60,077 bases of DNA from Candidatus Treponema merdequi (GTDB lineage Bacteria > Spirochaetota > Spirochaetia > Treponematales > Treponemataceae): contig JAGHVB010000028.1 of assembly GCA_018064525.1 (NCBI GenBank), forward strand, positions 1 through 60,077, in the 5' to 3' direction. The number at the start of each line of letters is the position of its first letter. Within the stretch, counting starts at the first letter, position 1. The notes under the pieces were generated by a model, which searched no databases, had not been told where the DNA came from, and worked only from the letters and a program-made list of their open reading frames with translations. The translations under genes were made by a program, and so were the position numbers. Below are positions 7,568 through 44,785 of the stretch, one piece after another.

Positions 7568-8607
7568 GCTTTTCCTCCCGTAATTTCTACATTAACGCCA
7601 ATCGTCTTTATATATTCAATTGCTTTTTCAACTTCTGCATCTTCACCGTTTATATCAACAATCAAAGTTCCGATGTCTTTTTCTTTTAAATGCTGAATGC
7701 CTCCAGCCCTGATGTTAAAAGTAACATCAAACTTTTTCGAAACAGTACTGATTACAGGCTCGCCTGTTTTTTCATCGATAAAGCGGAGAGTATATTTTCC
7801 ACCATGCTGACTCCAGCGGACAATTGAATCATCAGAAGAATCTTCCTGACCATTTTCATCAGCAATCGGATTAAGATGACTTAAGAAATCTTTTGTTGTT
7901 TCTGATTTTGGATTAGAGAAAATATCTGATACAGATCCTTCTTCTACAACTGCACCGTCATTTAAAACAGCAACTCTGTCACACGCGTCGCGTACAACTT
8001 CCATCTGATGCGTAATCATAACGACAGTAAGATTCATTTTTTTCTGAATGTCGCGGATGAGCTGCAAAATGGAACGAGTAGTCTGCGGGTCGAGCGCACT
8101 TGTTGCTTCGTCACAGAAAAGGATTTCAGGTTTATTTGCAAGAGCGCGCGCAATTGCAATTCTCTGCTTCTGTCCGCCGGACAAAGTACTGATAGGCGCA
8201 TCGGCTCTGTCAGAAAGTCCGACAAGTTCGAGAAGTTCTTTTACACGTTTATTGATTTCTTCTTTTGGAGTCTTACAGATCTCAAGCGGATACGCAATAT
8301 TCTTTGCAGCAGTTCTTGATGACAAAAGATTAAAGTTCTGAAAAATCATTCCCATATGACGGTGCTGATCAATCATTTCTTTTTTATCGAGACTGTCTAC
8401 CCGTTTATCATTGAAATAAACTTCGCCTGAATCCGGTTTCTCCAATAAACTAATGAGCCGGACAAGAGTTGACTTTCCGGCTCCGCTTTTTCCTATGATT
8501 CCATAAACTGTATTTGATGGAATATTTAAACTAACATTTTTAACAGCTTCAACCGTCTTATCATTCTGATGATAAGTACGGACGAGGTTTTGAATTTTAA
8601 TTTCCAT
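7564..8607 (-). CDS. metN: Methionine ABC transporter ATPase with NIL domain
   Basis: This 347-residue ATPase powers methionine import. Motifs in order are Walker A GKSGAGKST (39-47), signature LSGGQKQRIA, Walker B ILFCDEATSALD and the switch His in MITHQ. The last 90 or so residues (from about 255) match the NIL/ACT regulatory domain that binds methionine and causes trans-inhibition in E. coli MetN. The start ATG has no clear ribosome site; only AAGG about 15 nt upstream is visible. It begins 59 nt after a small unknown gene with which it may be co-transcribed. Confidence 0.93.
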   Translation of the reverse strand: MEIKIQNLVRTYHQNDKTVEAVKNVSLNIPSNTVYGIIGKSGAGKSTLVRLISLLEKPDSGEVYFNDKRVDSLDKKEMIDQHRHMGMIFQNFNLLSSRTAAKNIAYPLEICKTPKEEINKRVKELLELVGLSDRADAPISTLSGGQKQRIAIARALANKPEILFCDEATSALDPQTTRSILQLIRDIQKKMNLTVVMITHQMEVVRDACDRVAVLNDGAVVEEGSVSDIFSNPKSETTKDFLSHLNPIADENGQEDSSDDSIVRWSQHGGKYTLRFIDEKTGEPVISTVSKKFDVTFNIRAGGIQHLKEKDIGTLIVDINGEDAEVEKAIEYIKTIGVNVEITGGKA

Positions 8608-8666: not shown

Positions 8667-8897
8667 CTATGCTTTTTCTGCGTCAGTAAAAATGCTTTCT
8701 TCTTCGTAGTTAGCAATAAATTCCTGAACGTCTGCTGAATCAAGAATGATTCCATATTCGTCTGCAGAACCTGGTTTAATATCTGCGCTTAAGCCCTTAA
8801 AATCTGCATAGCTAACAACTTTTCCCCCGAGAGAACCTTTATCATTTGCTCTCTTAAACCCATTTGCACCACTATAACTGATGTATATTTCGCTCAT
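8667..8897 (-). CDS. Small protein of unknown function upstream of metN
   Basis: This 76-residue protein is not recognised. It has no signal peptide or membrane helix. The first half is glycine- and lysine-containing (KGSLGGKVVSYADFKG) and the last 25 residues are acidic (EEESIFTDAE). Reality is supported by an AGAGGT ribosome site and a promoter upstream (TTTACT, 17 nt, TATAAT). It lies just before metN on the same strand. The LGG stretch is not in a leader-like context, so it is not called a bacteriocin precursor. Confidence 0.6.
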   Translation of the reverse strand: MSEIYISYSGANGFKRANDKGSLGGKVVSYADFKGLSADIKPGSADEYGIILDSADVQEFIANYEEESIFTDAEKA

Positions 8898-9050
8898 TTC
8901 AAACCTCTCTGTTTCAATAATATTCTTTAATTATATAGTAATAAATAATATAAGTAAAGAAAAATTAAAATTCTCTAATTTTATATATATGCATTTTTTA
9001 TATGGAATTTGCGAAAAACTAATTTTCTTTTGCATAATTATACAACAATA

Positions 9051-9079
9051 TTGAATAATTTTTCATTTACATATATAAT
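9051..9079 (+). promoter_or_regulatory. Promoter of the OTC gene
   Basis: TTGAAT (9051-9056), a 17-nt spacer and TATAAT (9074-9079) precede the gene by about 33 nt. The 214-bp region 8898-9111 otherwise holds only the divergent promoter of the small upstream gene and AT-rich sequence. No ARG-box-like operator was recognised. Confidence 0.65.
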
Positions 9080-9111
9080 CATTTTATATTTTTATAAATG
9101 AGGTGAAATTT

Positions 9112-10101
9112 ATGAGTATTAGTCTTAAAGGAAGAAGTTTTTTAACATTAAAGGATTTTTCACCGGAAGAAATCAATTATCTTCTCGACCTTGCAGCTGA
9201 TCTGAAAAATAAGAAAAAAAATCACATCGCTGTCGATACTCATCACGGAAAAAATATCGCTCTCATCTTTGAAAAGACAAGTACAAGAACACGCTGTTCT
9301 TTTGAAGTTGCAGCACATGATCTCGGAATCATGACAACTTACCTTGCAGAAGGTTCTCAGATTGGAAAAAAAGAAAGTATTGCAGATACAGCAAGAGTTC
9401 TCGGACGTATGTATGAAGGAATCGAGTACCGCGGTTTTGAACAGAAAATCGTAGAAGACCTCGCAAAGTATTCAGGCGTTCCTGTATGGAATGGCCTTAC
9501 TAACGAATTCCACCCGACTCAGATGCTTGCCGACATGCTCACAATCAGAGAACACCTGGGTTCCCTAAAAGGCAAAAAACTCGTTTACTTTGGAGATGCA
9601 AGATACAACATCGGAAACTCACTCTGCATCGTATCTTCAAAACTCGGATTAAACTTCGTCGCATGTACAAATAAAAAATATTTCCCAGATTCAAAACTTG
9701 TTGCAGAATGCAATGAGTGGAATAAAACATCAGGCGGCTCAATTACTTTGACAGAAAATGTAGAAGAAGCTGCAAAAGACGCAGATGTAATTTACACAGA
9801 TGTCTGGGTATCTATGGGAGAACCTGATGCAGTCTGGGAAGAACGCATTAAAGACTTAAAACCATATCAGGTAAATTCAAGTGTCATGAAAATGGCAAAA
9901 CCAACAGCCATATTCATGCACGACTTACCTTCATTCCATAACCTCGATACAAAAATCGGAAAAGAAATTGCAGACAAATTCGGCATCACCGAAATGGAAG
10001 TAACAGACGAAGTTTTCGAATCAGCTCAGTCAGTTGTCTTTGACGAAGCCGAAAACCGCATGCACACCATCAAAGCCGTAATCGCCGCCACAATCAACTA
10101 A
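9112..10101 (+). CDS. argF: Ornithine carbamoyltransferase
   Basis: This 329-residue cytoplasmic enzyme makes citrulline from ornithine and carbamoyl phosphate, or the reverse in the arginine deiminase pathway. Carbamoyl-phosphate site motifs STRTR (57-61) and HPTQ (134-137) are intact, as is the ornithine-side SMG loop (234-236). The usual HCLPA motif reads HDLPS (270-274), so the conserved Cys is Asp. The C-terminus (EVTDEVFES, then [14 protein letters not shown]) closely follows E. coli ArgF. I chose the ATG at 9112 because GAGGTG sits 6 nt upstream; a GTG at 9103 overlaps that site. No arcA, arcC or other arg genes are nearby, so anabolic versus catabolic (arcB) use is undecided. Confidence 0.88.
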
Positions 10102-43227: not shown

Positions 43228-44403
43228 CTATTTTGAAACAGTCTGGATTGCTACGAATTCCCACTTTCCAGTTTCATTATTAACTTTTTTTACGTAAGCA
43301 ACATCACGTTTTGCATCGCCGTTTTCGTCGAATGCGATTGCGCCTGAAACACCTTCGTATGTTACAGAAGGAAGAACAGCGATGAGGTCTGAACCTTTTG
43401 TGCTTCCTGCTTTTTTGAGTGCTTCGAGTGCTGTGTAATATGCATCAAATCCCATTGCAGAAACAGCAGAGATTTCATCATCTCCACCATTATTTGTTTT
43501 TGCTGTTGCATTTGTATTGATGTATTTTTTGAATCCGTCTACGAAAGCTACTACATTTTCGTTTGTAGAACCTTCCATAAAGAATGTTGTTACATTGATG
43601 TTAACGATTGTTCCTTTTGCTGCTGCGAGAACAACGTTGGAATCCCATGTGTCTCCAGCGAGGATCGGCATCTGCATTCCCTGTGTGTTAGCCTGTTCAA
43701 TGATGAGAGCTGCTGCTTCAATTGAAACTGGTGAGAAGAATACATCAGCACCTTTATTTTTTGCATTTGCAACATAAGCTGCAAAGTCAGATGTTCCGTC
43801 TGGGAATGTTTCGTAAACAACTTCTCCACCGCGTGCTTTGAAAGCCTCGATAAAGTAGTTGCACAATCCTACTGAATAGTCATCACCGAGTTTTGCAAGA
43901 CAATACGCTTTTTTAGCAGCAAATTTATCGCATGCAAAGTTAGCAAGAACTGTTCCCTGGAATGGATCGAGGAAGCAGATTCTGAAATAATGGCTGTTTC
44001 CGAGTGTTACCTGAGGGTTTGTACAAGTAATTCCGATTGCAGGAACTTCTGCGTTTGCAAAAGTATCGCTTGCTGCGATTGAAACGCCTGATCCGTAAGA
44101 TCCCAAAACAACTGATACATTTTTGCTTACAAGTTCACTTGCAGCAGTAACTGCTTTATCATTTGAAGATTCGTTATCAACGATTTCAAGCTGAACTTTA
44201 TATTCTTTGTCTCCGATTTTTACAGTAGGTGTAATTGAATTTGCATACTGAACACCGAGAGTTTCCTGTTTACCACCAGCTCCATTATCTCCAGAAGCAG
44301 GTTCATAAACACCAATTTTAACTACATCTTTATCTGCACCACAACTTACAAAAAGAGCTGCAGCAGAAACAAGAGCAACCAGTCCTAAAACTAATTTTTT
44401 CAT
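43228..44403 (-). CDS. livJ: Branched-chain amino acid-binding lipoprotein
   Basis: This 391-residue protein has lipobox LFVSC (Cys21) and the type I periplasmic-binding fold of Leu/Ile/Val-binding proteins: VVKIGVYEPASGDNGAGGKQ, VLGSYGSGVSIAASD, EVPAIGITCTNPQVT and SAMGFDAYYTALEALKKAG. It delivers branched-chain or related amino acids to LivHMGF. AAGGAGA precedes the ATG. It is the first gene of the liv operon. Confidence 0.92.
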   Translation of the reverse strand: MKKLVLGLVALVSAAALFVSCGADKDVVKIGVYEPASGDNGAGGKQETLGVQYANSITPTVKIGDKEYKVQLEIVDNESSNDKAVTAASELVSKNVSVVLGSYGSGVSIAASDTFANAEVPAIGITCTNPQVTLGNSHYFRICFLDPFQGTVLANFACDKFAAKKAYCLAKLGDDYSVGLCNYFIEAFKARGGEVVYETFPDGTSDFAAYVANAKNKGADVFFSPVSIEAAALIIEQANTQGMQMPILAGDTWDSNVVLAAAKGTIVNINVTTFFMEGSTNENVVAFVDGFKKYINTNATAKTNNGGDDEISAVSAMGFDAYYTALEALKKAGSTKGSDLIAVLPSVTYEGVSGAIAFDENGDAKRDVAYVKKVNNETGKWEFVAIQTVSK

Positions 44404-44571
44404 TTTATTAGTCTCCTTTTAAAATAAGTACATCATTAATTTTAACATTTTAGCCCTTTTTATCCAATAGCACTTACTTTTAAGAGAAACAATCCCGGTC
44501 TGGAAAATTCCATAATAAAAGAAAAATTTAGAATATCGATAAAAGGCTGACCTTTTTTTTGCTATTTTTCG

Positions 44572-44577: not shown

Positions 44578-44620
44578 TAAGTGTAAAATGAATAAGAGAA
44601 TCTTGTTCGAGGAGGAATTT

Positions 44621-44785
44621 ATGAATACTAAATATACAAAAATTGAAAATGGAATACTTTCTGATAATGAACTTGAACAGATTAACGGCGGAATGAAAAT
44701 TGCTAAAATAAAACACAATACGAATTATTTTCACACAATTCTTAATATAATTTTCAGACATAAAAAGAAGAAAGTTACTAATTAA
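44621..44785 (+). CDS. Double-glycine leader peptide, bacteriocin-like precursor
   Basis: This 54-residue peptide has a leader ending LSDNELEQINGG (residues 13-24), the classic double-glycine leader cut by C39-peptidase ABC exporters. The predicted 30-residue core MKIAKIKHNTNYFHTIL(...)HKKKKVTN has eight Lys or Arg, three His and no acidic residue, with a hydrophobic middle. A strong AGGAGG sits 5 nt before the ATG. An upstream in-frame ATG at 44588 has no ribosome site. No exporter, immunity or modification gene is adjacent: the neighbours are divergent livJ and a convergent GGDEF gene. Function as an antimicrobial or signal peptide is inferred. Confidence 0.75.
   Translation: MNTKYTKIENGILSDNELEQINGGMKIAKIKHNTNYFHTILNIIFRHKKKKVTN

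What the first reader, a model, noticed from the sequence alone, without database searches (positions are those of the whole stretch)
44621..44785. Orphan double-glycine bacteriocin-like precursor in a spirochaete
The leader ends LSDNELEQINGG and is followed by a 30-residue core with eight basic and no acidic residues, behind a near-ideal AGGAGG site. Double-glycine leaders are exported and cut by C39-peptidase ABC transporters. None is adjacent, so processing would be in trans. It was easy to miss because of its size.
Basis: partly seen in the sequence, partly recalled or inferred. Interest (0 to 1): 0.75.

Follow-up and report, generated by a model that had tools for sequence, protein, structure and literature searches.

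The report
Scattered exported-peptide regulon in Treponema
The tiny gene is real and encodes a small positively charged peptide with a cleavable export tag; it is one of about 14 such genes scattered around a gut Treponema genome that appear to be switched on by one dedicated sigma factor and exported by one shared transporter, although whether the peptide kills other bacteria is untested.

Summary
Window 44621-44785 (+) encodes 54 aa with a textbook double-glycine leader (LSDNELEQINGG), a 30-aa core with net charge +8, and an AGGAGG site. The "orphan" reading needs changing. The genome has exactly one Peptidase_C39 gene, on another contig, inside a complete NHLP-type export operon: ECF sigma, HlyD, C39-ABC, ABC2, periplasmic binding protein, TolC. 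It also has about 13 other leader peptides, in 7 further loci. A promoter-like element, roughly CCTTTTTT-N9-12-CGTATAAAT, lies upstream of every one of these loci. In the 60-kb window, models trained without this gene score its site best of about 120,000 positions. In relatives the same element precedes double-glycine/Nif11-like precursors and the NHLP-linked ECF sigma operon itself; all 11 genus genomes with it carry an NHLP C39 exporter (27 of 200 do). The best explanation is therefore a member of a dispersed, sigma-controlled set of secreted peptides, cleaved and exported in trans. Bacteriocin activity is plausible from the charge but unproven: the core has no homologue, no immunity gene and no significant amphipathicity. 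Double-glycine precursors in Treponema are already known; the dispersed sigma/NHLP regulon appears new.

The parts
44547..44558 (+). -35-like block CTGACCTTTTTT of the shared promoter element
   Evidence: same block upstream of all other leader-peptide loci in the genome
44570..44578 (+). -10-like block CGTATAAAT of the shared promoter element
   Evidence: leave-one-out and relatives-only PWMs rank this site first of ~120,000 window positions; the sigma-70 scan does not report it
44610..44615 (+). ribosome-binding site AGGAGG, 5 nt before the ATG
44621..44785 (+). gene for the 54-aa double-glycine precursor peptide
44621..44692 (+). 24-codon leader ending L(-12)SDNE(-8)L(-7)EQI(-4)NGG, matching the ComA/LahT recognition pattern
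   Evidence: PMC6363468
44693..44782 (+). 30-codon core, net charge +8 (7 K, 1 R, no D/E), 3 His, no Cys

Best explanation
The gene encodes one precursor of a dispersed, co-regulated set of about 14 secreted peptides. Inferred: an ECF sigma factor encoded with the genome's only NHLP-type export operon (contig C43) recognises the element CCTTTTTT-N9-12-CGTATAAAT and transcribes the scattered precursor genes. Inferred from family knowledge: the C39 domain of that operon's ABC transporter binds the leader through L(-12), L(-7) and I(-4), cuts after Gly-Gly, and the HlyD/TolC conduit releases the 30-aa cationic core outside the cell. The most likely job of this core is antimicrobial (bacteriocin-like), because it is short and strongly cationic; that last step is only about 50% likely. 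Shown here: the gene, its leader, the single exporter operon, the sibling precursors and the shared element. Not shown: transcription, cleavage, secretion, activity.
For: Single C39 exporter in a 99.8%-complete genome, in an operon ECF sigma / HlyD TIGR03794 (305 bits) / C39-ABC TIGR03796 (1004 bits, cut-off 853) / ABC2 TIGR03797 (788 bits, cut-off 709) / Peripla_BP_6 / TolC. The C39 domain is closest to LahT (6mpz, 170 bits), a protease that tolerates diverse leaders, with Cys, His and Asp conserved (PMC6363468). The window leader has all recognition residues. Pattern CTTTTTT-N9-13-GTATAAAT occurs 8 times in 2.7 Mb (reversed control 1): four sites precede GG-peptide genes already in hand (C2 = this gene, C18, C51, C86); two led to GG peptides not found before (C14, C70); one precedes an ABC transporter 4.7 kb upstream of the exporter operon's sigma gene (C43); one (C44, AGTATAAAT, ileS) is probably chance. 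A leader profile then found no GG locus lacking the element or its C56 variant (C10 sites). PWMs trained without this gene rank its site first in the window, 15.2 vs 6.7 and 14.6 vs -4.5 for the runner-up. In relatives the element precedes the small ORF + ECF sigma + NHLP genes and GG/Nif11-like precursors. All 11 element-bearing genus genomes are among the 27 of 200 with an NHLP C39 exporter (hypergeometric 3e-11, reversed control 0). Among NHLP genomes the strict element is present in 10/13 with the cognate sigma versus 1/14 without (Fisher 3e-4), and the other three have visible variants upstream of the sigma's small ORF.
Against: In this genome the sigma operon itself lacks the element, so autoregulation is seen only in relatives; the genome has 8 sigma-70-family proteins over cut-off, so another sigma could be responsible. 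The spacing in front of this gene is one base longer than at most sites. Genome counts are not phylogenetically independent. Four of 23 strict sites in the family precede nothing recognisable. For antimicrobial action: no homologue, no immunity gene nearby, amphipathicity not significant (P = 0.10), sibling cores net -2 to +4, and the T. denticola analogue showed secretion but no killing (PMC11879956).
Confidence: 0.78

Rival explanations
1. The mature peptide is a cell-cell signal rather than an antimicrobial, sensed through the operon's conserved periplasmic binding protein or fed back on the ECF sigma, as with GG-leader pheromones exported by ComA-type transporters.
For: A Peripla_BP_6/ANF-receptor-like protein is conserved in the NHLP operons of relatives; C39 exporters also carry quorum peptides (PMC6363468); no immunity gene; T. 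denticola GG proteins showed no killing (PMC11879956).
Against: The many unrelated cores in one genome fit a weapon repertoire or effector set better than one signal; no dedicated receptor was sought or found; net charge +8 is unusual for a pheromone.
Confidence: 0.25
2. The core is a decayed or young orphan reading frame behind a still-functional leader and promoter; it is exported but has no selected activity.
For: No homologue in 196 genus genomes; decayed Nif11-like precursors behind intact elements occur in relatives (L115, L128, L130).
Against: Start, RBS, full recognition motif and promoter are all intact; the core has no acidic residue, which random drift does not readily give.
Confidence: 0.2
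3. The shared element is an ordinary strong sigma-70 promoter (TTGNCC-N18-TATAAAT), so the genes are not a regulon.
For: The -10 block contains TATAAAT and spacing is near 18 nt; other sigma factors exist in the genome.
Against: Only 8 exact sites in 2.7 Mb, nearly all at leader-peptide loci; the sigma-70 scan does not report the site; occurrence tracks NHLP systems and the cognate sigma across the genus.
Confidence: 0.1
4. Chance ORF with no coding function.
For: Small ORF with no homologous core.
Against: Leader above the curated cut-off, ideal RBS, 0 such ORFs in 40 shuffles, shared element ranked first in the window by independent models, sibling genes.
Confidence: 0.03

Closest known systems
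T. denticola bacteriocin-type signal domain proteins TDE_0416/0422/0424 with tepA1-tepB1 (PMC11879956, PMC4947327)
   Same: Double-glycine-type secreted proteins and a bacteriocin ABC exporter in a Treponema; secretion shown by immunoblot.
   Different: Clustered next to their exporter, with lipoproteins; no ECF sigma or shared promoter seen in the parts read; no killing found. Here precursors are scattered and the exporter is the NHLP type with a linked ECF sigma.
NHLP/Nif11 export systems (Haft et al. 2010, PMC2887384; TIGR03794/03796/03797)
   Same: The exporter operon meets the family models for all three NHLP components.
   Different: This precursor has a short 24-aa leader, not the 66-85-aa Nif11/NHLP leader; no modification enzyme adjacent. 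The anaerobe survey (PMC4289311) placed NHLP/Nif11 clusters only in Actinobacteria, delta-Proteobacteria and Firmicutes. The Haft paper does not mention sigma factors or promoters.
Lah cluster / LahT of Lachnospiraceae C6A11 (PMC6363468)
   Same: One substrate-tolerant C39 exporter for many diverse precursors; closest solved C39 domain (6mpz).
   Different: Nine precursors in one cluster with Nif11 leaders, versus precursors dispersed over the genome.
Prochlorosins of marine picocyanobacteria (own knowledge; PMC10783134 abstract)
   Same: Many precursors served in trans by a single shared enzyme.
   Different: The shared step there is the ProcM lanthipeptide synthetase; here it is export, with no synthetase seen beside the precursors.

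Membership tests
Double-glycine (C39-processed) leader peptides | L(-12), E(-8), L(-7), hydrophobic(-4), Gly-Gly at -2/-1 | tested here: met
   (TIGR01847 over cut-off); pattern from PMC6363468
Double-glycine (C39-processed) leader peptides | a C39 peptidase exporter in the same genome | tested here: met
   one PF03412 match, 142 bits; triad conserved
Double-glycine (C39-processed) leader peptides | cleavage after Gly-Gly and secretion | not testable with these tools
   needs enzyme assay or mass spectrometry
Class II bacteriocins | match to a curated bacteriocin family over the whole peptide | tested here: not met
   only the leader model TIGR01847 passes; whole-peptide families are below cut-off
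Class II bacteriocins | adjacent immunity and export genes | tested here: not met
   neighbours are a LivJ-like binding protein and a diguanylate cyclase, both on the minus strand
Class II bacteriocins | antimicrobial activity | not testable with these tools
   no assay possible
NHLP export operon (the C43 locus) | HlyD TIGR03794, C39-ABC TIGR03796 and ABC2 TIGR03797 over curated cut-offs | tested here: met
   305/156, 1004/853 and 788/709 bits
Nif11/nitrile-hydratase leader precursors | long Nif11- or NHase-like leader domain | tested here: not met
   no Nif11 match; leader is 24 aa
ECF-sigma/NHLP regulon described here | shared promoter element upstream of the gene | tested here: met
ECF-sigma/NHLP regulon described here | transcription depends on the NHLP-linked ECF sigma | not testable with these tools
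   only comparative support

The most novel reading that the evidence does not exclude
An export-coupled circuit: in most relatives with the cognate sigma, the sigma gene is preceded by the element plus a small ORF (LFDFQ...ELEMVNAAG) that itself ends in a C39-like cleavage motif. This small protein could be an anti-sigma that is itself an export substrate (as FlgM is for flagella), so that exporter capacity sets transcription of a dispersed peptide arsenal. In the window's genome two such proteins sit on contig C10 behind the element.
Probability: 0.15. Interest if true: 0.85.

Novelty: new variant of a known kind. Interest (0 to 1): 0.62.

Why it matters
Secreted-peptide genes are normally found by looking beside their exporter or modifying enzyme. 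Here a promoter element finds them anywhere in the genome, including two loci that the leader model TIGR01847 had missed and precursors in another genus (G269). It gives gut Treponema, for which little is known about competition or signalling, a defined and testable set of secreted peptides, a candidate sigma factor and one exporter. It would also give NHLP systems a regulatory circuit, which the papers searched do not describe.

Tried and rejected
(2) Homologues of the 54-aa protein: best genus hit E 0.0097, short, inside a 418-aa frame; judged spurious. (3) Amphipathic-helix test of the core: not significant. (4) The second-best promoter hit in the window (15205) lies inside an adenylate-cyclase-like gene; chance. 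(5) The C44 site (AGTATAAAT upstream of ileS) judged chance. (6) Nif11/NHLP membership of the window peptide: rejected. (7) The broad pattern in relatives (CTTTTTT-N9-12-CGTATAAAT) gave counts near background outside this genome; only the AGCC-extended form is specific. (8) First family scans failed on a coordinate error and were repeated. (9) Terminator scan downstream of the gene: none found. (10) Literature searches for an ECF sigma / NHLP link found none; the library lacks most subscription journals.

Full report
THE OBSERVATION. The reading frame at 44621-44785 (+) is as described: a 24-residue leader, MNTKYTKIENGILSDNELEQINGG, and a 30-residue core, MKIAKIKHNTNYFHTILNIIFRHKKKKVTN, with 7 Lys, 1 Arg, 3 His and no acidic residue. 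AGGAGG lies 5 nt before the ATG. The leader passes the curated cut-off of NCBIfam TIGR01847 (16.9 vs 15.7 bits). An ORF with such a leader plus a ribosome-binding site occurs once in the window and in none of 40 first-order Markov shuffles. The flanking genes are a LivJ-like binding protein and a diguanylate cyclase, both on the minus strand, so the gene stands alone.

THE EXPORTER. The window's genome (2.70 Mb, 87 contigs, 99.8% complete) has one Peptidase_C39 match, on contig C43. It belongs to an operon-like run in L008: ECF sigma (8775-9278), HlyD (TIGR03794), C39-ABC (TIGR03796), ABC2 (TIGR03797), a Peripla_BP_6 protein and a TolC-family protein. The C39 domain is closest to LahT, the tolerant protease solved as 6mpz (170 bits), and keeps Cys, His and Asp. 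LahT and ComA read L(-12), E(-8), L(-7) and a hydrophobic residue at -4 before Gly-Gly (PMC6363468); the window leader has all of them (L, E, L, I, GG). Processing in trans is therefore well supported but not shown.

THE SIBLINGS. A search with TIGR01847 found other leaders on C18, C51, C56 and C86. Reading upstream of them showed a shared sequence. The DNA pattern CTTTTTT-N9-13-GTATAAAT occurs 8 times in the genome, against 1 for the reversed control. One site is the window gene's; others precede the C18, C51 and C86 peptides; two pointed to double-glycine peptides not found before, on C14 (LNEDELSLICGG) and C70 (LNDSEIKKVSGG); one precedes an ABC transporter 4.7 kb upstream of the exporter operon's sigma gene (C43); one precedes ileS and is probably chance. 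A mismatch search added two sites on C10 in front of a different leader type, LFDFQ...DMVNAAG, with a double-glycine peptide (LKDEDLEQISGG) nearby. C56 has a variant with AGTATAAAT. A profile of the leaders (A2) then found only loci that already had the element. The total is about 14 precursors in 8 loci, including the window gene. Their cores are mostly unrelated in sequence, and the window core is by far the most cationic (net +8 in 30 residues versus -2 to +4).

INDEPENDENT TEST ON THE WINDOW. A position-weight matrix built from the other sites of the genome, and another built only from relatives' sites, both rank the site starting at 44544 first among about 120,000 positions of the window: 15.2 vs 6.7, and 14.6 vs -4.5 for the runner-up. 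The generic sigma-70 scan does not report this site.

RELATIVES. In ruminant and gut Treponema genomes (names) the form TTTAGCCTTTTT-N9-12-TCGTATAAAT lies in front of a small ORF (LFDFQ...ELEMVNAAG) followed by an ECF sigma about 47-50% identical to ours, with the NHLP genes next to it or in the same genome. Elsewhere in those genomes it precedes double-glycine or Nif11-like precursors, some intact and some decayed. Of 23 strict sites in the family I class 13 as precursors or remnants, 6 as the sigma/NHLP locus and 4 as unclear (L119, L122, L124, L129). One site is in another genus (G269), and it also precedes a double-glycine peptide (L153). In 200 genus genomes 11 carry the strict element and all 11 are among the 27 with an NHLP C39 exporter (hypergeometric 3e-11; genomes are not independent, so this overstates). 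Among the NHLP genomes the strict element is in 10 of 13 with the cognate sigma and 1 of 14 without it near the NHLP locus (Fisher 3e-4); in the remaining three of the 13 a variant is visible upstream of the small ORF. The sigma search in the 14 was limited to the stretch around the exporter.

MECHANISM. Shown: gene, leader, single exporter, siblings, shared element, and co-occurrence with the sigma. Inferred: the NHLP-linked ECF sigma reads the element; C39 cuts after Gly24; the HlyD/TolC conduit exports the core. The function of the core is the weakest step. I put about 50% on antimicrobial action, because of charge and size, with signalling and a non-selected core as rivals. The T. denticola double-glycine proteins were detected in supernatant but no killing was seen (PMC11879956).

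WHAT IS KNOWN AND WHAT IS NEW. Double-glycine proteins and bacteriocin exporters in Treponema are known (PMC11879956, PMC4947327). NHLP systems and tolerant C39 exporters are known (PMC2887384, PMC6363468). The anaerobe survey found NHLP/Nif11 clusters only in Actinobacteria, delta-Proteobacteria and Firmicutes (PMC4289311). I found no paper describing an ECF sigma or promoter element that ties dispersed precursors to an NHLP exporter, but subscription journals are mostly missing from the library. The window gene is a new member of a known kind; the dispersed regulon is a new variant.

LIMITS. No transcript or peptide data. The sigma operon in this genome lacks the element, and the genome has other sigma-70-family proteins. 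The core has no homologue, so conservation cannot be used to judge it.

Noticed in passing
L008 4088-6097 (G000 C43:146086): The element precedes a 614-620-aa ABC transporter (ABC_membrane + ABC_tran) 4.7 kb upstream of the NHLP operon's sigma gene; possibly self-protection or a second export component.
   Followed up: partly
L008 15038-16240; L055 13815-14984; L150 9300-10520; L151 4441-5646: A Peripla_BP_6/ANF-receptor-like protein is conserved next to the NHLP ABC genes in many Treponema; its role in a peptide export operon is unexplained.
   Followed up: partly
L143 6727-7026 and the site at 7808; L055 11721-11954; L056 2547-2762; L064 9758-9970: A family of small proteins (LFDFQ...ELEMVNAAG) with no Pfam or NCBIfam match, ending in a C39-like motif, lies between the element and the ECF sigma in relatives and unlinked on C10 in this genome.
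   Followed up: partly
L115, L128, L130: Intact elements followed by truncated Nif11-like leaders: apparent precursor decay with promoter retention.
   Followed up: no
L060 2208-5004: In G016 the element precedes a 185-aa Nif11-like GG precursor, a 110-aa GG precursor and a radical-SAM-like gene, so some precursors of relatives are probably modified.
   Followed up: no
window 43228-44403: A LivJ-like branched-chain amino-acid binding protein gene is divergent from the peptide gene; the NHLP operon also carries a binding protein of this superfamily. Probably coincidence.
   Followed up: no
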